Shown piece by piece: positions 19,116 through 61,169 of a stretch of 64,000 bases of DNA. Made by a program: the position numbers and the translations under genes. Location of the stretch: assembly GCA_023701385.1 (NCBI GenBank), contig JAMPXC010000001.1, positions 62,001-126,000 of the forward strand, given 5' to 3'. Source of the stretch: Pseudobdellovibrio sp. (GTDB taxonomy: Bacteria; Bdellovibrionota; Bdellovibrionia; Bdellovibrionales; Bdellovibrionaceae). Numbering within the stretch: the first letter of the stretch is position 1; every line of letters begins with the position of its first letter. A model generated the notes under the pieces. It made no database searches. It worked only from the letters and a program-made list of their open reading frames with translations, and was not told the DNA's origin.

Positions 19116-22070
19116 CTATTGATTTTCTTCAGGAGCGAAACCGCGTCTCATTGTGTTTTCTGTCACAACGATTGGCTCAGTGAATTGTTTTAAATAATCA
19201 GGGCCACCGGTTTTTGAACCGATACCTGACATTTTGTATCCACCGAACGGGTGACGATCAACCATAGCACCTGTGATACCGCGGTTGATGTACATGTTAC
19301 CCACTTCAAGATCATGCTTAACACGTTCAATGTTAGCAGGGCTTCTTGAAAAAATTCCGCCAGTTAACGCGTACTCTGTAGAGTTTGCGATTTCTAAAGC
19401 GTGGGTTAAATCTTTCGCGCGGATCATCGCCACGATTGGGCCGAAGAATTCGTTTTGAGCCACGTCGTCAGAACCTTTTACATCACCAAAGATTGTGATG
19501 GGAACGAAGAAGCCACCTTGCGGAGATTCACCTTTGAATAACACTTTATATTTGCTAGAGGCTTGGGCGATTGAATTATTTAAACGCGTGTAAGCTTCTT
19601 CATCAACAACTGGTCCAAAATAGCCTTTTGGATTTTCAGCTGAAGAAATTTCGATAGATTTAGCACCTTCAACTAAACGTTGAGTGAATTTATCATAAAC
19701 TTCATCTAATACGATCACGCGAGAAGCTGCAGAACATTTTTGACCTGCAAAACCAAACGCTGAGTACAATACGCCATCTACAGCTTCATCTAAATCCGCA
19801 TCGCTATCGATGATAACGGCGTTTTTACCGCCCATTTCGATAATGCAACGTTTTACGTGTTGTTGGCCTGGTTGAACAACGGCCGCGTTTTTAGCGATTA
19901 ATAGACCTACAACTTTAGATCCTGTGAAAGCGATCGTTGTTGTATAAGCATGCTTCACGATGTAATCGCCCACGATCTCACCAAAACCTGGTAAGAACTG
20001 TAACGCGCCATCTGGAAGACCCGCTTGTTTAAATAAATCATAAAGACCTTGAGCTACTAGCGAAGATTGCTCTGCAGGTTTCATAACAACTGTATTACCA
20101 GTTACTAAGGCCGCAGCCACTTGTCCGGCAAGGATCGCTAAAGGGAAGTTCCACGGAGAAATAACCGCTACAACACCGCGAGGTTTGTAGATGTATTGGC
20201 TCACTTCGCCTGGAGCGTGACCAACGCGTAATGGACGCGCTAATTCGCGTTGGTGACGGGCGTAGTAACGTAAGAAGTCGATCGCCTCAGCTACGTCAGC
20301 ATCGGCTTCAGCCCAAGGTTTACCTACTTCAACGATTTGGTGAGCCATAAGTTTATATTTATTTTTCACCATTAAATCAGCGACGTCGTCTAAGTATTTA
20401 GCGCGACGGAAGCTATCAACATTTTTCCAAGTTTTAAAACCTTCTTGGGCTTTTTGCATCGCTTGTTCTGCTGTTTCAACAGAAGCCATTGTGACATCAG
20501 CTACAACTTGCGAGTTGTTAGAAGGGTTTACACGTTTGAATGATTCGCCTTGAGATACTTTTTTACCACCGATGATCGGTTCAATTTTAACTGGTAACTG
20601 AGATTTTAAAGCAGCAATGGCTTTTAAAGTTTCAGTACGAACTTCCTCAACAGCGAAATCTAAGTAAGGTTCATTGTAGAAATCAGTTGGTTTAGTTTCT
20701 GGAGTAGGGTTTGTCGGTGTTAGACCTACGGCTGGATCTTTTAATAATTCAGCTGTTGTTTTACCTTCAGCAAATTTTCCACGTAACCAAGATTCATTCG
20801 ACGTGTTTTCTAATAAACGGCGAACTAAGTAAGCCATACCAGGAATTAATTCTCCCACAGGAGCGTATTCACGTACACGGTAACCCATGTCTGATAAAGC
20901 TTTTTTAATCGGCTCGGCCATTCCGTATAACATTTGAATTTCGTAAGCGTTTTTAGGTAAGCCAAGTTGTTCAGCTTTAACTAAGGCTGCAGAAATTGTA
21001 CGAACGTTATGAGATGCGAGCGCCACGCGAATGAATTTATAATTTTCAAGTAAGTAGCCTGCGCACATTTCATAGTTCGCATCGGATTCAGCTTTGTTTA
21101 AGTAAACCGGGATTGACCAGTTTTTTTGTTTGGCTTCGATAGTTTCAGAATCCCAGTAAGCGCCTTTGACTAAACGGATTGTGAACGGAGTTCCACGTTT
21201 TCTGGCGAATTCAGTTAAATCTTTTACGTCAGCATAAGAATCACGTAAGTAAGCTTGCACTACGCAACCGAAGAAGCGGTAGCTTGCAAATTCAGGCTCA
21301 GAGATTAACTCTTTGAAAACTTCTACAGTTAAATGTTTTACTCCGTAGTGTTCCATATCTAAGTTTACAAATACGCCTAGATCCATACCTTTTTTAAAGA
21401 TTGGACGAAGACGATCTTTCAACATGGTTTTAGATTCATCCCAGGCTTTGTCGTTGATCTGAGAATAAACCGCCGTCATTTTTACTGATACGTTGATTTT
21501 TGGAATTGAACCATCAGCATCGCGGTCTAAAAGAGGAATCTCTTCCCATTTAGCAGCATCTTTAGCAAGCCATTCGATTAATTCGATATAACGCTTTTGA
21601 TATTCTAAAGCTTCTTTTTCAGAAAGAGTGGCTTCACCTAAAATATCAACTGTGAAAGTTAAATTATTTTTACGAGCTTTTTTCAAGACAGTTAAAGCTT
21701 CATCTGGTGTTTCACCAGTGATGAACATTTTTGCCATTGAAGTTACGTTCTTTTTAATCGCGCCGGCCATTAAACCCGGAGCTAAAGAACCTAAGCCTAA
21801 GCCCACGTTGAACACAGAAGGAAGTTCAGCTTTGCCACCTTCAGAGAAATATTCTTTTAAGTGAGTGGCAACACCATCTGAAGTTGTTAATGAAGGAAGT
21901 ACGTCCACGAAACGAAACATGTTTGTTTTGAATTTTTCATTCTTCATCGACCAGTCCATGACTGAACCGTACCAGAAGTCTTTTGAAAATAATGAACCTT
22001 TAGATTGAGATTCCATACGTTTAAGAATCTCTTCACCCTTGTTTTGGATTTTTAACTGATTGTCTTGCAT
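19116..22070 (-). CDS. putA: Bifunctional proline dehydrogenase / P5C dehydrogenase
   Basis: A 984-residue PutA that oxidises proline to glutamate. The N-terminal half is the FAD-dependent proline dehydrogenase barrel, with RLVKGAYWDSE and the flavin and substrate motif REYAPVGE...GMAYLVRRLLEN. Residues about 480-975 are the NAD-dependent aldehyde dehydrogenase, with SPWNFPLAILAGQ, the general base Glu in EMGGKN and the catalytic Cys in FAGQKCSAASR. There is no N-terminal DNA-binding domain, so it is not a self-repressing PutA. It is the third gene of a SixA-FAH-putA run with 15 bp before it. Amino acids are a plausible carbon source for a predator. Confidence 0.96.
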   Translation of the reverse strand: MQDNQLKIQNKGEEILKRMESQSKGSLFSKDFWYGSVMDWSMKNEKFKTNMFRFVDVLPSLTTSDGVATHLKEYFSEGGKAELPSVFNVGLGLGSLAPGLMAGAIKKNVTSMAKMFITGETPDEALTVLKKARKNNLTFTVDILGEATLSEKEALEYQKRYIELIEWLAKDAAKWEEIPLLDRDADGSIPKINVSVKMTAVYSQINDKAWDESKTMLKDRLRPIFKKGMDLGVFVNLDMEHYGVKHLTVEVFKELISEPEFASYRFFGCVVQAYLRDSYADVKDLTEFARKRGTPFTIRLVKGAYWDSETIEAKQKNWSIPVYLNKAESDANYEMCAGYLLENYKFIRVALASHNVRTISAALVKAEQLGLPKNAYEIQMLYGMAEPIKKALSDMGYRVREYAPVGELIPGMAYLVRRLLENTSNESWLRGKFAEGKTTAELLKDPAVGLTPTNPTPETKPTDFYNEPYLDFAVEEVRTETLKAIAALKSQLPVKIEPIIGGKKVSQGESFKRVNPSNNSQVVADVTMASVETAEQAMQKAQEGFKTWKNVDSFRRAKYLDDVADLMVKNKYKLMAHQIVEVGKPWAEADADVAEAIDFLRYYARHQRELARPLRVGHAPGEVSQYIYKPRGVVAVISPWNFPLAILAGQVAAALVTGNTVVMKPAEQSSLVAQGLYDLFKQAGLPDGALQFLPGFGEIVGDYIVKHAYTTTIAFTGSKVVGLLIAKNAAVVQPGQQHVKRCIIEMGGKNAVIIDSDADLDEAVDGVLYSAFGFAGQKCSAASRVIVLDEVYDKFTQRLVEGAKSIEISSAENPKGYFGPVVDEEAYTRLNNSIAQASSKYKVLFKGESPQGGFFVPITIFGDVKGSDDVAQNEFFGPIVAMIRAKDLTHALEIANSTEYALTGGIFSRSPANIERVKHDLEVGNMYINRGITGAMVDRHPFGGYKMSGIGSKTGGPDYLKQFTEPIVVTENTMRRGFAPEENQ

Positions 22071-22085
22071 GCGTAAATTTTTACG

Positions 22086-22727
22086 CTAGTTCACGTCCCA
22101 TTGGCAAACTAAAAGCGGCTGGTTATTAGAGCGTGTTTTGTCTCTCAAAATAGCCTCTAATTTATCACCAGATTTCAGTTGTCCGACACCTGACGGAGTG
22201 CCCGTTAAAAGAACATCGTGCGGCGCTACGGGGAAATGCGTTTTAACATATTTTAAAAGCGTTTCGGGACTAAAGATCATGTCAGAGGCATTGCCTAATT
22301 GTTTAGTTTCGTTATTAATTTTTAGCTCGAGCTGCAATGATTCAAGATTAAGCACACTGTTCAATTCTAGCCATGGGCCTAGCGGGCAGGAATCAGTAAA
22401 TGATTTAGCTAATGTCCACGGAAGGCCATTTTTTTTAGCATCGGATTGGGCATCGCGTGCTGTCAAATCAAGCGCTAAAGTGAAGTGTGAAAATTCTAAA
22501 TTTTCATTCAGCCAGAATGCGATTTCTAGTTCGTGGTGAATTTCTTTCGACCAAGCAGGTAAGTGAATCACGCTGCCTGAAGAAACTGTGGTTCCCGATT
22601 TTAAAAAGATCACGGGATTTGCCGGAACTTCGGCTTTCATTTCTTTGGCGTGATCAGCGTAATTGCGGCCAGCGGCCCACACGTTACGAATTAAATTTGA
22701 ATGAAAAGTATTTTTCTCGTTAGCCAT
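22086..22727 (-). CDS. Fumarylacetoacetate hydrolase-family protein
   Basis: A 213-residue FAH-fold protein. It carries NVWAAGRNYADHAKEM, VIFLKSGT, the metal-ligand Glu in HHELEIAFWL, a later Asp in ALDLTARDAQ, and LLTGTPSGVGQLKSGD, typical of the FAHD1/acylpyruvate hydrolase or oxaloacetate decarboxylase branch. I start it at 22727; the frame extends to 22817, but that part lies inside the upstream SixA-like gene. The 8-bp overlap with that gene implies coupling. Putative role: hydrolysis or decarboxylation of a 2-keto acid next to proline catabolism. Confidence 0.88.
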   Translation of the reverse strand: MANEKNTFHSNLIRNVWAAGRNYADHAKEMKAEVPANPVIFLKSGTTVSSGSVIHLPAWSKEIHHELEIAFWLNENLEFSHFTLALDLTARDAQSDAKKNGLPWTLAKSFTDSCPLGPWLELNSVLNLESLQLELKINNETKQLGNASDMIFSPETLLKYVKTHFPVAPHDVLLTGTPSGVGQLKSGDKLEAILRDKTRSNNQPLLVCQWDVN

Positions 22728-23229
22728 TGGCAGCTCCGCGTGATTTGAACATCCATAGACCATCTTCACCAATTTGAAATTGAATGAATTGTGCAGGTGA
22801 CCATCCGGCAAATTCAAATGAAGTTAAATTTTTATCACTGTCGATGACAGTCATCGCTTCTTCGACCCAGTCATAGTGAGTGCAAGCGTAAACGACTTGG
22901 TTTTTATTTTCTGGTTGTGAAGCTTGGTAAGTGTAAAGGTTTACTAGTTTTTGAACCCGGGCGCGAAACTGTTGGGCTGATTCATTCATCTCGCGTAAGT
23001 TTAATTCATTTTTGATTTCGTGTTTGGGTTTAAAATTTTCGATTAAATCACTCAGTGTTTCTTTGGTTCTGATTTTATCTGAATATAAACAAACAGTAGG
23101 CGCTGGAAGCGCGTTGTCTTGCACCATTTTTAAAAGCTGACGAGCTTGTTCATGGCCTTTTGCGCTTAAGTTAGGGTTTTCAGGTGGATCCATCGACTTA
23201 TGGCCGTGCCGTAATAAAATGAAAATCAT
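22720..23229 (-). CDS. SixA-like histidine phosphatase
   Basis: A 169-residue member of the histidine phosphatase (phosphoglycerate mutase-like) superfamily. The phosphate pocket has LLRHGHKSMDPPENPNLSAKGHEQA with the catalytic His8 in RHG, and the second His is in YACTHYDWVEEAM. SixA enzymes remove phosphate from phospho-His, but many relatives have other substrates. It begins an operon with the FAH-family gene and putA. Confidence 0.85.
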   Translation of the reverse strand: MIFILLRHGHKSMDPPENPNLSAKGHEQARQLLKMVQDNALPAPTVCLYSDKIRTKETLSDLIENFKPKHEIKNELNLREMNESAQQFRARVQKLVNLYTYQASQPENKNQVVYACTHYDWVEEAMTVIDSDKNLTSFEFAGWSPAQFIQFQIGEDGLWMFKSRGAANG

Positions 23230-30656: not shown

Positions 30657-31223
30657 TTAAGCCCATAAAGCGTCCCACTCCGACGAAGAGAGTCCTCTGA
30701 GTCGCAGTGGTTTATATTTTATCGCTCCCGAAGCTTCTTTTAAATTAAGCTGAATATAATTTCTAACAATTAAATAAGGTTTCCAGCCCTGAATCACGCG
30801 CGTAAACGGCCTGTACTTCCAAAGCTTTGGGGTATCGGTCACATATTTAGCTTTTAAAAATCCATTATTCTTAAACTGCTGAGCAATTTGCCCGGCTACC
30901 ACTCGTAAAAAATACTGGCCGAACGATCGTTTCGAAAAGCGAACCAATAAATGCAAATGATCGTGATTAATAGAAATCTGTTCTACCTTCACAAAAAACC
31001 TTCGCGCATATTGTTTAATAATACGATTGATCAGATAAAATCCCAACGGTGACCGAAGCCCCCGGCGCAGTGATTTACTCTCGGTTTTAAACACCAAATG
31101 AACAGGAGCCTTTGTTGATAACGGGCGAGCTTTGCGCCCACGGCGTTTGTTGCGTAAGACACCGCCATGGTTATAACGAAATTGCCAATGTGTTTTGATA
31201 AAATGTAATTGTGTGTGACCCAT
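30657..31223 (-). CDS. RAYT-like Y1 (IS200-type) transposase
   Basis: A 188-residue REP-associated tyrosine transposase-like protein. The HUH metal motif is NHDHLHLLVRFS, preceded by the strand VEQISI, and a helix with a Tyr candidate follows (SFGQYFLRVVAGQIAQQF). The N-terminal PVHLVFKTESKSLRRG is a typical RAYT opening. It ends 9 bp after the converging PBECR-like gene. No IS ends or flanking target repeats are visible, so it appears to be a domesticated single copy. The start at 31223 is preceded by AAAGGCTGGGG; the frame runs to 31256 but without a better site. Confidence 0.85.
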   Translation of the reverse strand: MGHTQLHFIKTHWQFRYNHGGVLRNKRRGRKARPLSTKAPVHLVFKTESKSLRRGLRSPLGFYLINRIIKQYARRFFVKVEQISINHDHLHLLVRFSKRSFGQYFLRVVAGQIAQQFKNNGFLKAKYVTDTPKLWKYRPFTRVIQGWKPYLIVRNYIQLNLKEASGAIKYKPLRLRGLSSSEWDALWA

Positions 31224-31318
31224 ACCCCAGCCTTTCGATGAATTAGCGAAAAGCAAGATCAGGGCAGGGTTTAAAGGGTAGCTATTCGTCGGAGATATCC
31301 GGAATTCAGATCTTTTTC

Positions 31319-36993: not shown

Positions 36994-38406
36994 TTAATTT
37001 GGTTCGTCTGAAGTTTTTGTACCTAAACGCTCAGGTAGTTTGTTCGCTGGCTTTTTATCTTTTTTACCCATAACGCGTAAAAGATCTTGGCCAAATCCTG
37101 CGATTTGATCAACTTGTTTTCTGTTACCTACGTTAGGGTCGTTGCCTTGAGCTGCATTACCCGAAGAAAATAAGCTTCTATCCATAGTATCTAAGAATTT
37201 AATTCCAGAAATACCAGTCGTTTTCTCTAAGATCGTAAGCGATTTGAATAAGTTTAGCTGGCGAGCTGTGCGTGTTTTATTCGCTAAGCTTTGTGAAGAA
37301 TCACCCGTAGCTAAGATAAACTTTTTAACTTCTTCAGAGTTATTATAAAGATCTTTATCAGCCATAACTAAAACCGCAGCACCTGTTACGAAAGCTGTGG
37401 CTTGCGATGTTCCGGTCATTAAACCGTAAGAGCTGTTTGGTAAACATGAAAGAATCGTTTGGCCAGGGGCTGCGATATCTACAGTTTCAGTTCCATAATT
37501 TGACGATGATAAAACTTCTGTTGTTGGATCAATCGCTGTTACAGAAATAATATTTTTTAATTTGTAATCAGCCGGGTAGTAGTGATGTTCATCTGAGTTT
37601 GAACGTTCGTTACCTGCAGCAGCTACGAATAAAATATTCTTAGCTTCGGCCGCAGCCACAGCATCATGTTCTTCTTGAGAAAATTCGGTACCACCACCAG
37701 AGTAGTTGATGATGTGCGCGCCCATTTTTACCGCGTATTGAATCGACTGAATTGTATTTTTTAAGTTATCAGTGTTTGGAACTTTCGGGTCATAATATTT
37801 TAGAATCATAAGGCTAACTTCGGGAGCAATACCGCTGATGCCTTTTTTATTTCCCGCTTCAGCGCCGATGATACCGGCGATGTGAGTTCCGTGACCGTGG
37901 TTATCGTCTAACTTGTTATTTTGAGAGACGAAGTTCCAACCGTAAACGTCATCGGTAAAACCGTTACCGTCATCATCAACACCGTTGGTGGCTTTGTTTC
38001 TACCTTTGGCATCTTTTCCAGTTTCACCTGGATTTTGCCATAGGTTATTTTTTAAATCTTCGTGGTTAATATCAATGCCCGTGTCGATCACGGCAACGAT
38101 CACTTTTTTGCTACCTTTAGTGATAGACCAGGCACGAGCCGCATCAGATTTTTTTAAACCCCAAGCTTGTTTGATAGCAGGGTCGTTGAATAGCGCTGAT
38201 GGTTCGTTGGGAACTTGCGTTGATGAGTCAACGACAGTGCCAAGCTCTAATGTTCTGTTATCAACTTTTTTTGTTTTTGATTTTTGTGATTGCGCCATGC
38301 GCTCAGCACTTGCTGGTTCTCTTTGTTTCCAAAAATAATATCCGCCCAGCGAAAAGCAGAAGAAGACAAAAGTACCAATAACAGCATTAAAGAATTTATT
38401 ATTCAT
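36994..38406 (-). CDS. S8 subtilisin-like serine protease
   Basis: A 470-residue exported subtilase. The catalytic triad is intact: Asp in VAVIDTGIDINHED, His in DNHGHGTHIAGIIG, and Ser in GLMTGTSQATAFVTGAA, with the oxyanion Asn in FVAAAGNERS. An N-terminal helix (residues 9-27) acts as signal or membrane anchor, and a short region before the domain could be a propeptide. The tail after residue 390 is charged and unassigned. Secreted subtilases are abundant in predatory bacteria. It has no Shine-Dalgarno; a GCCGATAA -10 ends 7 nt before the ATG. Confidence 0.93.
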   Translation of the reverse strand: MNNKFFNAVIGTFVFFCFSLGGYYFWKQREPASAERMAQSQKSKTKKVDNRTLELGTVVDSSTQVPNEPSALFNDPAIKQAWGLKKSDAARAWSITKGSKKVIVAVIDTGIDINHEDLKNNLWQNPGETGKDAKGRNKATNGVDDDGNGFTDDVYGWNFVSQNNKLDDNHGHGTHIAGIIGAEAGNKKGISGIAPEVSLMILKYYDPKVPNTDNLKNTIQSIQYAVKMGAHIINYSGGGTEFSQEEHDAVAAAEAKNILFVAAAGNERSNSDEHHYYPADYKLKNIISVTAIDPTTEVLSSSNYGTETVDIAAPGQTILSCLPNSSYGLMTGTSQATAFVTGAAVLVMADKDLYNNSEEVKKFILATGDSSQSLANKTRTARQLNLFKSLTILEKTTGISGIKFLDTMDRSLFSSGNAAQGNDPNVGNRKQVDQIAGFGQDLLRVMGKKDKKPANKLPERLGTKTSDEPN

Positions 38407-38413
38407 AATGTGT

Positions 38414-38442
38414 TTATCGGCACTTAAGATACGAAATCTTAA
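38414..38442 (-). promoter_or_regulatory. Sigma-28-like -10 and dyad upstream of the S8 protease
   Basis: On the minus strand GCCGATAA (38414-38421) is the exact FliA -10 consensus, with TAAG about 16 nt upstream instead of TAAA. The spacer contains a palindrome TTAAGAT-ACGAA-ATCTTAA (38424-38442). FliA-type promoters drive motile attack-phase genes in Bdellovibrio, so this would fit expression in that phase. Confidence 0.4.
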
Positions 38443-38469
38443 CGAGATTTGCGTTTCAGAATGATACTC

Positions 38470-40338
38470 TTACTTCTGAGCGCCAACCCCAGCTGGTACA
38501 AAGGCTGGAGCGTTAGTCATTGGCTCTGTAGCCTTGATAAACTTCTCAGGAAAGTCGGTTTCTTTACTTGGAGATTCTAAACGGTCGTAAAAAAGATGGT
38601 TGCGGGCAATAATTTTTACGTAAAGTTTAGTTTCGTCGTAAGGAATTTCTTCGACAAAATCAACAATATCAAATTTAGGGCGGAATCGTTGTTTTAGCCA
38701 GCGGGCTACGGCATTTGGTCCAGCATTGTACGCTGCTGCAACTAAAGCGTACTGATCTTTTTGTTTTTTAACCTGGTCGGATAACTCGTAGCTGCCAAGT
38801 TTAATGTTGATCTGTGGGTTATAAAGATCTTCTGGTTTTTTGTAAGCCACTTTGTATTTGCGGGCCAATGATTTCGCCAGTGGTGGAATCACTTGCATTA
38901 AACCAAGCGCATTAGCGCCGCTGCGAGAATTGATATTAAACGCAGACTCTTGGCGCATGATTGAGAAAATCAAACTTGGAGGAAGACCTGTTGTTGAGGA
39001 CATTTCTTTAACTTCGGTTTCCCAAAGGCGCGGAAAAAGTAATTCAGCATTTTTGACCATAATATCTTGTTTTTGTTCCATTGGAAGTTTTGCAAAAGCA
39101 ATAAATAACGGCAAGAAACGTTGGCCACGTTCAGCTAACTCTAAACCTAGAACCGTCATTTGTTCTGGCTTGTCCGTTAAAGCTTGAGCTGCGCGTTCAG
39201 CTAGATCAACTTCTTCATGTTTTAGTAAAGCATTGAATAAATCTTTTTGCTTGGGTTCTAAGAATGAAAGAGAACTGTCGAATTTAAATTTATCCGTCGT
39301 TTTTAAAGCGTTAAACGGCGGAATTTTAATTTGTAGGGCATCGTAAGCTAATAATGAATAGTAACTGTAGAAATCTTCTTTAGTCATCGCTGTCCAGATT
39401 TCTTTAGCCTGATCTTTTTTATCAAGACGGGCTAAGCAGCGGGCTAAGAAAAAGTTTGAACGTGATTTTTCAGCGGGATCTAAAGTTTCAGTGGCTAAGG
39501 CTTTAAAGGCTTCAGCGGCTAAATTGTAATCTTCAGATTTATAAAGTACCCACGCTTTTGTCCAAAGCATTTTTTCTCTGGTTAAGACTGGATTTTTCGA
39601 AGGGCCTTTTTTTAGTTCTTCTAAAATATTTTCGTAATAAGCTAAGGCTTCTGTAAATTTACCTTCATCTTCTTTGACTTTACCTAGAAGATAAGAAATT
39701 TCAGTTAAATTCTGCTCTTGAGATTTTAAAGCTTTAACCGTAGCTGATAACAATTTATCGGCTTTATCAAATTCATTTTCAGAGTATAAATGACGTCCCA
39801 CTTGAACAGAGGCTTCAAGATATAATTCTTGGTGTTTTGTGTTTTTAGGATCTTTTTTGTACGTTTTTAAAGCTAAAACGTGCCAGTCTTTAAGAGTTTT
39901 GATCGCATCATTTCTTTTGTTGTTAGAGCGAAATTTTTGACGAAGCTGCTTCATTAAACCCATTTTTTCAACAGGCTTTTTCTCTTTATTGATTTGTTTT
40001 CTTAACTCATTAATCGAAGCATTTTCTAATTGAGCCACTTCAGTCGTTGTTGAAACCGGAGTTGTTGGAAGAATTAAGATATTTGCTTCAGCGATTTCTT
40101 GTAAGTATAACTTACGTTCAAAATCAGATAACGATTTCATGTCGAAATTAAAACCAGGACATTTTTTAATCCCACGAATACCGGCTAGTGAACTTAAGGC
40201 AAAGTCTTTATCTTTGGCTGATTTATCTAACTGTTCGCACGACATTTCTTTAAGCTTTGTAAAACCAAAAAGCTGTGCATGACTGTAGCCGAACATAAAA
40301 GGGATTAATAAACAGGTTTTTCTTAGTGTTGCAATCAT
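38470..40338 (-). CDS. Lytic murein transglycosylase with helical repeats (Slt type)
   Basis: A 622-residue periplasmic lytic transglycosylase. A signal peptide (FMFGYSHA, residue about 21) is followed by a long helical/TPR-like superhelix (residues about 120-430, such as YYSLLAYDALQI), as in Slt70. The SLT domain has the catalytic Glu in FSIMRQESAFN, then GANALGLMQVIPPLA and YALVAAAYNAGPNAVARWL. It cleaves peptidoglycan between MurNAc and GlcNAc with anhydro-sugar formation. It is 9 bp downstream of clpA in the same direction. It could work in turnover or in prey wall remodelling. Confidence 0.93.
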   Translation of the reverse strand: MIATLRKTCLLIPFMFGYSHAQLFGFTKLKEMSCEQLDKSAKDKDFALSSLAGIRGIKKCPGFNFDMKSLSDFERKLYLQEIAEANILILPTTPVSTTTEVAQLENASINELRKQINKEKKPVEKMGLMKQLRQKFRSNNKRNDAIKTLKDWHVLALKTYKKDPKNTKHQELYLEASVQVGRHLYSENEFDKADKLLSATVKALKSQEQNLTEISYLLGKVKEDEGKFTEALAYYENILEELKKGPSKNPVLTREKMLWTKAWVLYKSEDYNLAAEAFKALATETLDPAEKSRSNFFLARCLARLDKKDQAKEIWTAMTKEDFYSYYSLLAYDALQIKIPPFNALKTTDKFKFDSSLSFLEPKQKDLFNALLKHEEVDLAERAAQALTDKPEQMTVLGLELAERGQRFLPLFIAFAKLPMEQKQDIMVKNAELLFPRLWETEVKEMSSTTGLPPSLIFSIMRQESAFNINSRSGANALGLMQVIPPLAKSLARKYKVAYKKPEDLYNPQINIKLGSYELSDQVKKQKDQYALVAAAYNAGPNAVARWLKQRFRPKFDIVDFVEEIPYDETKLYVKIIARNHLFYDRLESPSKETDFPEKFIKATEPMTNAPAFVPAGVGAQK

Positions 40339-40347
40339 GGGGCCATC

Positions 40348-42612
40348 CTAGCTGTAGTGAAACTCTAACATTTTGTTAGCTGGCGAATATGAGACGTGAA
40401 TCTTTCCGCCGTTTTTTAATTTTCCAAATAATAATTCATCAATGATTCTTGATTTAACAAGTTCGTCGATTTTTCTATGAAGCGGGCGGGCACCGTAAAC
40501 CGGATCATAACCGCGTTCGGCGATATGAGTGACAACGGCTTCGTCATAGATAAAATCAACCTTCTTCGCAGCTAAAGTGTGCTTTAGTTCAGTTAAAAAT
40601 TTGTCGACGATATTTTTAACTAAATCTAAAGTTAAGCCGTTGAAGTAAATCACTTTATCTAAACGGTTAATAAATTCAGGCGCAAAAGTTTTTTTAATGG
40701 CTTCAGAGCTGACTGATCCTGGGTTGGTTGTGCCTAGGCCAATATTTCCACGGGCTACATCGGCAGCCCCTGCGTTTGAAGTCATAACTAAAATACAGTT
40801 TTTAAAATCAACAGTGCGGCCGTTGCCATCTGTTAAGCGGCCTCCATCCATAATTTGCAATAAAATATTATAAATATCTGAATGCGCTTTTTCGATCTCA
40901 TCTAAAAGAATTAGTGAATACGGACTTTTTGAAACAGCTTCAGTGAGCTGACCGCCTTGTTCAAAACCCACGTATCCTGGAGGAGCACCCACTAAACGTG
41001 AGATTGAGTGTTTTTCCATGTATTCACTCATATCAAAACGTTGGTAGTTCACACCTAAAATGCGGGCGAGCTGTTTACAAACTTCGGTTTTACCAACACC
41101 AGTAGGGCCGGCAAAAAGAAACGAACCCCATGGTTTTTCTTTATTTTCTAAACCACTGCGCGCAAATTTAATCGCTTGAGTTAACGCTGTGATTGCATCG
41201 TCTTGGCCAAAGATTAAAGATTTTAATTTAATATCTAGATCTTTAAGCAGGCTTAAATCATCTGAAGAAAGCTGAGTTGTTGGAACGCCAGAGATTTTCG
41301 AGATAATTACGGCCACATCTTCGGTATCAACAGTTTTTTGCTTTTTAAGTTTTGTTGTTGAACCTACTTCATCCATGATGTCGATGGCTTTATCCGGAAG
41401 TTTGGCAGACGTTAAATATTTAACTGAAAGCTCAACGCAAGCACGGATGGCCGCCGGGGTGTAAGTCACATCGTGGAATTTTTCGTACTGTGGTTTTAAT
41501 GATTCTAGAATTTGAACTGTGTCTTCAATAGATGGCTCTTTGATGTCAATTCTTTGAAATCTGCGGTTTAAGCCACGATCTTTTTCAAAGTGCTGGCGGT
41601 ACTCCTGAAAGGTAGTCGCGCCAATGCAAGAAATCTCACCTTTAGATAGAGCGGGTTTAAGTAAGTTCGCCGCATCCATTGAAGAGCCTGAAGTTGAGCC
41701 GGCTCCTACGATATTATGAATTTCATCGATAAAAAGAATAATATTCGGGTCGGCTTTAGCTTCTTTTAAAATATTTTTTAAACGACCTTCAAAGTCACCA
41801 CGGTATTTAGCGCCAGCTAAAAGTGAACCCACATCAACCGAGTAAATAGTTTTATTTTGTAAAAAGTCAGGAACTTGGCCTTGGTTAATTTTTTCAGCCA
41901 AACCTTCAACGATAGCCGTTTTACCAACACCGCTATCACCAATGATTAACGGATTGTTTTTTTGTCGGCGTCCTAAAGTTTGAATCATTTTTTCAATGAT
42001 ATCTTCACGACCTACTAAAGGATCTTTTTTGCCACTGCGGGCGTAGTCATTTAAATTAATGGCAAAATCTTCTAGGGCCGTTGCTTTTTTGTCTGCAGCA
42101 GCACCTGTACGAGAGTCGTTTTCATCAGCTGTTGATTCTGTACCAGACCGTGAGCTGGCTGATAATTCATGGCTTACAACTGAAATCACATCAAATTGCG
42201 TAAGTCCCATTTTTTGTAAGACATAACTGGCTTTAGATTTTTTCTCATCGAATAAAGCAATAAAAACTGAAAGTTCGTTAATTTCAGAACGTCCGGCATT
42301 TTGCATTTGTAAAGCGGCACGCTCAAAAGCGCGATGCACAGAAACGGTAAGTTGCGCTTTCCATTCTGAAGGATCACCTTCAGCGAAAGTTTTTTTCTGT
42401 TCTTCAGTGAGTGTGTCGTTTTTATTAATGTACGTTTGTAATTCTTTTTTGATCTCGGCCACATTGACATTGAGTTTTTCACAAACTTCAACAACTTGCG
42501 GAGCTTCAAGAAGGCAGTAAGCAAAATGTTCAAGCGTTACGAATTCGTGCGATTTTTTCGTCGCTAGATCGATGGCTTTACCTAATCTTTTATCAAGTTC
42601 TTTTGAAATCAT
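40348..42612 (-). CDS. clpA: ATP-dependent Clp protease ATPase subunit ClpA
   Basis: A 754-residue ClpA. The N-domain has [25 protein letters not shown]. The first AAA+ module has Walker [18 protein letters not shown] and Walker [16 protein letters not shown]; the second has [16 protein letters not shown] and [16 protein letters not shown]. The linker lacks the long ClpB middle domain, and clpS is directly upstream (10 bp), as is usual for ClpA. With ClpP it unfolds and degrades proteins, including N-end-rule substrates. ClpP is not in this window. Confidence 0.96.
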
Positions 42613-42622
42613 ACGCAGTTCC

Positions 42623-43009
42623 TTACTTGTCTTCCTCAGTAATAGATTTTAGCGGGTATTTGTTATTTTTAGCAAACTGGTTCACTTGCAGAGCTTTAGT
42701 TTCTGCCACCTCGAAATTATAGATTCCTGCGATGCCTGAACCTTGTTTATGTACGTCCAGCATTATTTTGTTCGCTGAGCGGTCATCATGCTTGAAAAAA
42801 GTTTTTAAAACGTAAACAACAAAATCCATAGGTGTGTAGTCGTCGTTCAAAATTAAAACTTTGTAAAGATTTGGCTCTTCAGTTTCAACTTCATCAAGCA
42901 GATCAATTCCGGTTGCAGAATCGTTATTGCCGCCACCAGAATTTTGTCCAGCTAAATAGATTTTGTAGAGTGATAAGTTCTCAGACTGAGACGTGTTTGT
43001 TTGATACAT
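42623..43009 (-). CDS. clpS: ClpS adaptor
   Basis: A 128-residue adaptor that brings N-degron substrates to ClpA. The core has YKVLILNDDYTPMDFVVYVLKTFF with the NDDYTPM substrate pocket and KIMLDVHKQGSGIAGIYNFEVAETKALQVNQFAK with the VHKQG and GIAG elements. The first 40 residues are a disordered Asn/Ser/Gly-rich tail, which in ClpS enters the ClpA pore. An exact palindromic operator core lies inside codons 7-10. Confidence 0.95.
   Translation of the reverse strand: MYQTNTSQSENLSLYKIYLAGQNSGGGNNDSATGIDLLDEVETEEPNLYKVLILNDDYTPMDFVVYVLKTFFKHDDRSANKIMLDVHKQGSGIAGIYNFEVAETKALQVNQFAKNNKYPLKSITEEDK
42979..42991. promoter_or_regulatory. TCTCA-GAC-TGAGA palindrome inside clpS
   Basis: Exact copy of the recurrent core, 18 nt inside the coding sequence from the start codon. 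It encodes part of the disordered tail, so the protein sequence would tolerate it. It could block elongation or act on a start site nearby. Confidence 0.4.
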
Positions 43010-59754: not shown

Positions 59755-59831
59755 GGAGTTGTAGTTAAGTTGGTTATAACGTCCGCCTGTCACGCGGAAG
59801 GCCGCGGGTTCGAGTCCCGTCAACTCCGCCA
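59755..59831 (+). tRNA. tRNA-Asp (anticodon GTC)
   Basis: Seventy-seven bases fold as a complete tRNA. The acceptor stem GGAGTTG pairs with CAACTCC, the discriminator base is G, and CCA is encoded. The anticodon stem TCCGC/GCGGA holds the loop CTGTCAC with GTC at positions 34-36. The T-loop is GTTCGAGTC. Its 3' 24 bases plus nine beyond have a copy at 58566-58598. Confidence 0.97.
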
Positions 59832-59906: not shown

Positions 59907-60320
59907 ATGAAATCGGTCTTTGTTTTAGCTTTTACTATCGTTCTGTCTGTTCAGTCGCTCGCAGGTAATTGCAACTCTCAAAACTTAGTCGGTGAGTGGA
60001 TAAGTAAAACTGAATCCGCCTTAGCGCCGCATTCGGTTTGCGGTAAGACTATCAAAAATGAAAAGACCATTTTCACGTTTATGAATAAGGCTGGGAAATT
60101 TTCTGGTCATGGCGCGAGTGTGACTGTGACAGCTTTTCAAAATCAGAAATCTTGTTCACCAGTCACAAAGACATCAAAGTACCCATTTGTTGAGTTATAT
60201 TCTAATGGTAGTCTTGGTATTATGTCAGATCATGGGGCACAGGTTATTTCTGAGTGTGCTGTAAGTTCTGATCGTTCTAAGCTTAAGCTAGGTAGTAATG
60301 TCTATCAACGAACAAAATAA
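59907..60320 (+). CDS. Small secreted hypothetical protein
   Basis: A 137-residue protein with a signal peptide cut near SLAG-N (residue 20). The mature domain begins NLVGEWISKTESALAPHSVCGKTIKNEKTIFTF and is beta-rich with several Cys, like small lipocalin-like or META-like envelope proteins. Not recognised. There is no ribosome site; TTGATT-18-TATTTA ends 9 nt before the ATG, so the leader would be about 3 nt. Confidence 0.65.
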   Translation: MKSVFVLAFTIVLSVQSLAGNCNSQNLVGEWISKTESALAPHSVCGKTIKNEKTIFTFMNKAGKFSGHGASVTVTAFQNQKSCSPVTKTSKYPFVELYSNGSLGIMSDHGAQVISECAVSSDRSKLKLGSNVYQRTK

Positions 60321-60355: not shown

Positions 60356-60958
60356 ATGAAACGTCTAATTAACGGAAAAAATTTAATTTTCTTATGCTCG
60401 CTGTCTGTGGTTATCGTAACAAGTGCGTTGCTCTTTCAAACCATTGATCTGTTGTCAGGCTTAAGATCAGGTATTCGTTTTACAGCTCAATATTCTTTGG
60501 TTTTATTTAGTATTGTTTTTATTGCGAGTTCGTTGCAGTTGTTTTCAAAAAATCAATTGACGATGTGAATTAGAAAAAATCGCCGTTATTTAGGGTTGTC
60601 TTTTGCTGTGTCACATCTTGTTCATGGGCTAACGATATTTGTTTTATATTTAAAGTATGAAGATGTGTTTCAGCAAACGGTAAGTTCGCTTTCAAAAATA
60701 TTTGGAGGTATTGGCTTTTTTATTGTCTTTGTTTTAGCGATGACGTCTTCTGATTATGCGATTAAGAAAATTGGATTTGCACGTTGGAAAAGAATCCATC
60801 TAATTGGTGTTTATTATATTTGGTTTATCTTTTTAGCCAGTTATCTGCCACGAGCGATCAACTCTCCAGGATACTGGATGGTTGTTTTGTTTTTAGCCGC
60901 CAGTCTTGGCCTGCGACTTATTTATCGTCGAACTCAGAAGGCTTCTTCTTTTCCATAA
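60356..60958 (+). pseudogene. Ferric-reductase-like membrane gene split by one in-frame TGA
   Basis: Two open stretches in one frame, 60356-60565 and 60569-60958, are divided only by TGA at 60566-60568. Read through, they give a 200-residue membrane protein with about six helices. It has the ferric-reductase-like (MsrQ/YedZ-related) pattern: KNRRYLGLSFAVSHLVHGLTI, then VLAMTSSDYAIKKIGFARWKRIHLIGVYYIW, with the heme-ligand His residues. A Trp is common just before the Arg-rich NRRYLG motif in related proteins, so TGG to TGA is a simple explanation. Possibilities are a fresh nonsense mutation, read-through, or two separate chains. A TATAAT ends 6 nt before the ATG. Confidence 0.72.
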
Positions 60959-61169
60959 CGCCGCGGTTACGGATAATTAGGCCATCTAAAAATTTACGTA
61001 ATAATTGATCGCCGCAGGGCTGGTAATTGGGATGATCTTCATTTCTAAAAATAGCGGAAAGTTCGGATTTTGAAATTTCAAAATCGACATTTTTTAAACA
61101 CTCTAAAATATCAGTATCGCGGAATGATAAAGCAACGCGCAGTTTTTTAAAAATATCATTATTTGTCAT
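60918..61169 (-). CDS. DUF1456 (YehS-like) protein, single repeat
   Basis: An 83-residue protein of the DUF1456 family: MTNNDIFKKLRVALSFRDTDILECLKNVDFEISKSELSAIFRNEDHPNYQPCGDQLLRKFLDGLIIRNRG is one complete repeat unit. Known members such as E. coli YehS carry two repeats (about 150 residues), so this is a half-size version. Function unknown. It overlaps the converging ferric-reductase-like gene by 41 bp. Confidence 0.85.
   Translation of the reverse strand: MTNNDIFKKLRVALSFRDTDILECLKNVDFEISKSELSAIFRNEDHPNYQPCGDQLLRKFLDGLIIRNRGVMEKKKPSEFDDK

What the first reader, a model, noticed from the sequence alone, without database searches (positions are those of the whole stretch)
60356..60958. One TGA divides a ferric-reductase-like gene
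The two halves are in the same frame, with no gap or shift, and the second has no good start codon (ATT or a late TTG). The TGA sits where a Trp is common in relatives. Options: recent loss, read-through with near-cognate tRNA-Trp, or local strain variation.
Basis: partly seen in the sequence, partly recalled or inferred. Interest (0 to 1): 0.52.

Follow-up and report, generated by a model that had tools for sequence, protein, structure and literature searches.

The report
Stop-interrupted ferric-reductase-like membrane gene
A small, rarely carried membrane electron-transfer gene in this bacterium is cut by one stop codon but otherwise looks intact, most likely a very recent loss of function or a single wrong base in a draft genome, which is ordinary.

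Summary
In detail: TGA at 60566-60568 interrupts one continuous frame (60356-60958), 70 codons before it and 129 after. Read across the stop, it is a six-helix ferric-reductase-domain protein (PF01794, 34.5 bits, cut-off 28). Uninterrupted relatives exist, and Trp is commonest at the stop's column (19 of 41). The part after the stop shows no excess divergence and keeps 18 of 22 residues invariant in five relatives. So the interruption is very young or a base error. Nothing supports programmed read-through: RF2 is intact, tRNA-Sec reaches its cut-off in 0 of 14 genus genomes, the RNA after the stop is unstructured, and the closest relative's tRNA-Trp is ordinary; this genome's own tRNA-Trp was not found. 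The gene is accessory: the subfamily was found in 2 of 290 genomes of the phylum, in the genus relative at another place. Best reading: recent nonsense inactivation of an accessory gene; main rival, a single-base error. No reads were available. Ordinary; low interest.

The parts
60356..60568 (+). first part of the interrupted gene: 70 codons plus TGA; predicted helices 7-28 and 32-60 and most of a short helix 67-74
   Evidence: alone hits no Pfam family
60566..60568 (+). in-frame TGA, codon 71; column where Trp is commonest in relatives (19 of 41)
60569..60958 (+). second part, 129 codons plus TAA; carries all three conserved histidines (87, 90, 148 of the read-through protein); Ferric_reduct hit
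60918..61169 (-). DUF1456 gene, tail-to-tail with the interrupted gene and overlapping its last 41 bases; 91% identical over 75 residues in G013, where its neighbour differs
59907..60320 (+). upstream neighbour, small protein with an apparent signal peptide (by eye), 35 bases before the interrupted gene; no confident family
59755..59831 (+). tRNA-Asp (gtc), upstream

Best explanation
The gene is an accessory, single-domain ferric-reductase-like membrane protein (six predicted helices, heme-type histidines in helices 3 and 5) inactivated very recently by one nonsense change at a Trp column. Translation would stop after two membrane helices, before any of the conserved histidines. The remainder has no usable restart at the break; a late TTG start would lose the invariant Arg pair (76, 77). 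The protein is therefore probably absent or non-functional in this strain or population. Shown: the interruption, the family, intact relatives, lack of measurable decay, patchy distribution. Inferred: that the stop is real in the organism, that it abolishes function, and that the electron-transfer role applies.
For: One continuous frame with one stop. Uninterrupted relatives: G013, same genus, 43% identity; Steroidobacter MAG, 37%, full length. Trp at the stop's column in 19 of 41 aligned relatives. Identity to the G013 protein is 20/50 before and 51/125 after the stop, and after the stop the window copy is no further from four outgroups than the G013 copy is. Residues invariant in five relatives kept: 3 of 4 before, 18 of 22 after. 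Coding score per codon is the same in both parts (-0.052 and -0.048), higher than in the two other forward frames. The gene is dispensable: the subfamily was found in 2 of 143 genomes of the class and 2 of 290 of the phylum. G000 has no second Ferric_reduct match. RF2 intact; 6 of 61 ORFs of 100 aa or more in the window end in TGA, so TGA is used as a stop.
Against: No second strain or read set was available, so a base error cannot be excluded. Lack of decay is also what a functional read-through gene would show. Only one same-genus homologue of this subfamily exists (43%), too far for dN/dS. Coding scores of both parts are low for this window (median gene 0.177), as for several small ORFs, and one reverse frame scored as high as the gene's own. 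Not every close relative has Trp at the column: L014 has Ala and L050 has Ile.
Confidence: 0.62

Rival explanations
1. The stop is a sequencing or assembly error of one base in a draft genome; the gene is intact in the organism.
For: Draft of 96 contigs, 95.19% complete. No sign of decay anywhere else in the gene. A single base would be enough, at a column where Trp is common.
Against: It is no indel, the commoner error type on many platforms (recalled). The contig is long (136,565 bases) and no other broken gene stood out among the pairs checked in the window. No coverage data either way.
Confidence: 0.24
2. The stop is read through as Trp at a low or regulated level by tRNA-Trp, so the gene still works.
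For: Trp column, no decay after the stop. In-frame stops under purifying selection are reported as widespread in bacteria, while tending to persist only briefly (PMC7918605: abstract and first part of Results read). A tRNA-Trp with a 4-bp anticodon stem raises UGA read-through in E. coli (PMC13092985: passages read). TGA ends only 6 of 61 window ORFs.
Against: Closest relative G013 has a standard tRNA-Trp: CCA, 5-bp anticodon stem; A9 and G24 as I number its ARAGORN drawing. RF2 intact. No structure after the stop (z -0.60). No relative was seen with a stop at this place. G000's own tRNA-Trp was not found.
Confidence: 0.1
3. Two separate proteins that assemble: a two-helix piece and a four-helix piece restarted at TTG 60596 or at the ATT after the stop.
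For: Both parts stay open and coding-like.
Against: No ATG, and by eye no Shine-Dalgarno-like stretch, at the break. A TTG start loses invariant R76 and R77. The relatives listed have one frame at this place. Nothing suggests selection for a split.
Confidence: 0.03
4. Selenocysteine is inserted at the TGA.
For: The stop is TGA.
Against: tRNA-Sec over its cut-off in 0 of 14 genus genomes, G000 included (the same search passes the cut-off in 5 of 14 control genomes). No stable hairpin after the TGA. Relatives have Trp, Ala or others, and no Cys, at the column.
Confidence: 0.01

Closest known systems
Short bacterial ferric reductase domain proteins (Pfam PF01794 Ferric_reduct; 'short bFRE' of PMC3591440, passages read)
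   Same: Domain over the Pfam cut-off. Six predicted helices. Arginine at the start of helix 3 and His in helices 3 and 5. Fold matches led by STEAP4, STEAP2, STEAP1 and NOX5 (best E 9.6e-3, so weak).
   Different: Interrupted by a stop; lacks a His 13 residues after H148.
MsrQ/YedZ (NF003831)
   Same: Best NCBIfam match, 35.6 bits over residues 8-161.
   Different: Far under the equivalog cut-off of 130.
Bacterial genes with one in-frame nonsense codon and otherwise normal sequence (PMC7918605, abstract and first part of Results read)
   Same: Single in-frame stop, no other damage; that paper finds such stops common and short-lived.
   Different: Here only one genome carries it, so persistence and selection cannot be measured.

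Membership tests
Ferric_reduct domain (PF01794) | HMM score over the gathering cut-off (28 bits) | tested here: met
   34.5 bits for the frame read across the stop; 33.4 for the second part alone
Ferric_reduct domain (PF01794) | four canonical heme histidines, two in TM3 and two in TM5 (or Arg replacing the first, as in YedZ/STEAP; PMC3591440) | tested here: inconclusive
   R76 (41 of 41 relatives), H90 (28 of 41) and H148 (40 of 41) present; no His at 161, the +13 place, in the window copy or in its five nearest relatives. Matching these to the NOX2 numbering is my inference.
MsrQ/YedZ | NCBIfam equivalog cut-off of 130 bits | tested here: not met
   35.6 bits
MsrQ/YedZ | partner gene msrP nearby | not tested
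   no dedicated search; none seen among the neighbours that I gave to Pfam
UGA recoded as Trp genome-wide | loss of RF2 function, UGA not used as a stop | tested here: not met
   prfB at 496 bits over the cut-off of 370, intact 342-aa ORF; 6 of 61 window ORFs end in TGA
UGA read by a variant tRNA-Trp | tRNA-Trp with UCA anticodon or 4-bp anticodon stem | tested here: inconclusive
   G013 standard. In G000 not found: 27 tRNA places read, pattern search, 140 of 192 contig ends
Selenoprotein | tRNA-Sec present | tested here: not met
   0 of 14 over cut-off
Young pseudogene | nonsense codon in a gene intact in relatives | tested here: met
Young pseudogene | the stop is real in the organism | not testable with these tools
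   no reads, no second strain

The most novel reading that the evidence does not exclude
The TGA is kept as a throttle: ordinary tRNA-Trp reads it at a low level, so a rare membrane electron-transfer protein is made in small amounts, under conditions that weaken termination.
Probability: 0.06. Interest if true: 0.45.

Novelty: new member of a known kind. Interest (0 to 1): 0.13.

Why it matters
As it stands it is one more case of a single nonsense codon in a dispensable bacterial gene, useful mainly as a caution that an undamaged frame after a stop does not show read-through. It would matter only if the stop were confirmed in several strains with the downstream part under selection, since that would make it a test case for functional UGA read-through in a bacterium with the standard code.

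Tried and rejected
Selenocysteine: rejected. Genome-wide UGA=Trp: rejected. Frameshift or gene fusion: rejected, the frame is unbroken apart from the stop. Synteny as a test of age: of no use, because the gene is not in the same place in G013, and neither of the two other DUF1456 loci compared (G008, G001) shows it. dN/dS: not attempted, the only same-genus homologue of the subfamily is 43% identical. More relatives: plasmids gave no match (queried with the G013 protein); viral contigs gave 260 pattern matches and no relative. MsrQ equivalog: rejected by score. Papers: three searches; the search for Bdellovibrio with pseudogene and premature stop codon listed two papers, neither opened; I make no claim that this locus is absent from print. 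PMC3591440: passages. PMC13092985: passages. PMC7918605: outline with abstract and part 1 of the Results.

Search for this genome's own tRNA-Trp: the Rfam tRNA search scored 150 of 270 candidates and gave 27 places, none of them Trp. A pattern search gave 4 matches with 3 mismatches each, which I judged chance and did not follow. In G013 tRNA-Trp lies in the stretch just downstream of the Thr-Tyr-Gly-Thr tRNA group. In G000 contig C42 ends soon after that group, inside a reading frame conserved in G013 (probably tuf, recalled gene order), so the sequel is missing or on a part of the genome that I did not fetch.

Full report
What is there. On the + strand an open frame starts at ATG 60356, meets TGA at 60566-60568 and continues in the same frame to TAA at 60956-60958. 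The second open stretch is not chance: 4 of 20,000 base shuffles of its 129 codons were free of stops, and it passes the Pfam Ferric_reduct cut-off alone (33.4 bits against 28). Read across the stop, one Ferric_reduct match spans both parts (residues 46-155, 34.5 bits).

What family. The protein would have 200 residues. An AlphaFold model from three sequences (mean pLDDT 76.5, pTM 0.71) gives six long helices, with residue 71 in a short helix (67-74) between helices 2 and 3. The best solved-structure matches are STEAP4, STEAP2, STEAP1 and the NOX5 membrane domain; no match reached E 0.001 (best 9.6e-3), so this is support, not proof. The nearest curated NCBIfam name, MsrQ, is far below its cut-off (35.6 against 130 bits). 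All three conserved histidines (87, 90, 148) lie after the stop. A product ending at residue 70 would hold two helices and none of these histidines.

Relatives. With the read-through protein as query, 11 of 99 genomes (own included) matched at E 0.001 or better; the best other is G013, same genus, 43% identical and uninterrupted over the aligned part. A scan of genome contigs gave two more, in a Steroidobacter MAG (37%, residues 2-200) and a 'Proteobacteria bacterium' MAG (36%). A profile of these four found the subfamily in 2 of 143 genomes of the class and 2 of 290 of the phylum, both times only G000 and G013, and found relatives, mostly more distant, in 47 of 296 genomes of the order around the Steroidobacter MAG. 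Across 41 aligned relatives the stop's column holds W in 19, A in 7, F in 5, T in 3, K in 3, R in 2, M in 1 and I in 1 (29 of these 41 are the loci L049-L077 that delivered, the other 12 come). The five nearest have W, W, A, W and I (L003, L013, L014, L049, L050). None of the 41 has a stop at that column, but each row is one stop-free frame by construction. The search tables, which do count stops, list one TAG (G157, second match) and one TAA at the 5' edge of the G013 match; the G013 one lies upstream of its frame, and the G157 one was not placed.

Age of the break. If the part after the stop had been free of selection for long, it should have drifted. It has not. Identity to G013's protein is 20 of 50 before and 51 of 125 after the stop. 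Against L013, L014, L049 and L050 the window copy after the stop scores 52/126, 42/121, 44/126 and 41/119, and the G013 copy 49/125, 41/120, 44/125 and 40/118. Of the columns invariant in the five relatives it keeps 3 of 4 before and 18 of 22 after; the four changes after the stop are conservative (L to I twice, Y to F, M to L). Codon scores of the two parts are alike. So the stop is very young, or not real, or tolerated. These data do not separate the three.

Read-through. RF2 is present and intact (496 bits against 370, 342-aa ORF); the TAG that the search table counts inside this match lies outside that ORF as I read it. TGA ends 6 of 61 ORFs of 100 aa or more in the window. tRNA-Sec reached its cut-off in 0 of 14 genus genomes, though weaker matches were listed in all 14. 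The 101 bases from 60560 fold at -18.0 kcal/mol against a shuffle mean of -16.34 (z -0.60). A 2026 paper reports that tRNA-Trp with a 4-bp anticodon stem raises UGA read-through in E. coli (PMC13092985, passages), so I looked at tRNA-Trp: in G013 it is CCA with a 5-bp stem, and A9 and G24 as I number the drawing. G000's own gene was not found in 27 tRNA places, one pattern search and 140 of 192 contig ends. Read-through is therefore unsupported but not excluded.

Context. The gene ends tail-to-tail with a DUF1456 gene, overlapping it by 41 bases. The DUF1456 gene is 91% identical in G013 at 1,571 kb, while G013's ferric-reductase relative is at 1,846 kb, and the DUF1456 stretches of G013, G008 and G001 show no match to the interrupted gene. 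The gene is thus not in a conserved place. Its scarcity suggests that it is dispensable, the sort of gene in which a nonsense change is tolerated.

Verdict. Recent loss by one nonsense change is the most likely explanation (0.62), a base error in a draft assembly the main rival (0.24), read-through a minor one (0.10). The finding is ordinary.

Noticed in passing
L003:1483-2190 (G013): The G013 relative lacks the first membrane helix: its frame begins right after a small ORF in another frame (ending ...GPRKGN), with a GTG as first start. It too is altered at its 5' edge compared with the longer relatives.
   Followed up: partly
window 60836-60838 (residue 161 of the read-through protein): The subfamily (window copy, L003, L013, L014, L049, L050) has no His 13 residues after the helix-5 His, where 9 of 41 aligned relatives have one; heme binding may differ from MsrQ.
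   Followed up: partly
window 36994-42648, - strand: Three neighbouring long genes lie in one frame, each separated from the next by a single stop (Clp-type AAA protein, SLT transglycosylase with TPR, subtilase): separate genes, a useful control against reading every such pair as one broken gene.
   Followed up: yes
window 19116-22823, - strand: FAA hydrolase and a fused PutA (proline dehydrogenase plus aldehyde dehydrogenase), also same frame with one stop between.
   Followed up: yes
window 30657-31256, - strand: IS200-like transposase (Y1_Tnp, 28.6 bits against 23).
   Followed up: no
G000:C42 end (L224): The contig ends inside a frame just after the Thr-Tyr-Gly-Thr tRNA group, so the stretch that holds tRNA-Trp in G013 was not seen in G000; the draft may lack it.
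   Followed up: partly
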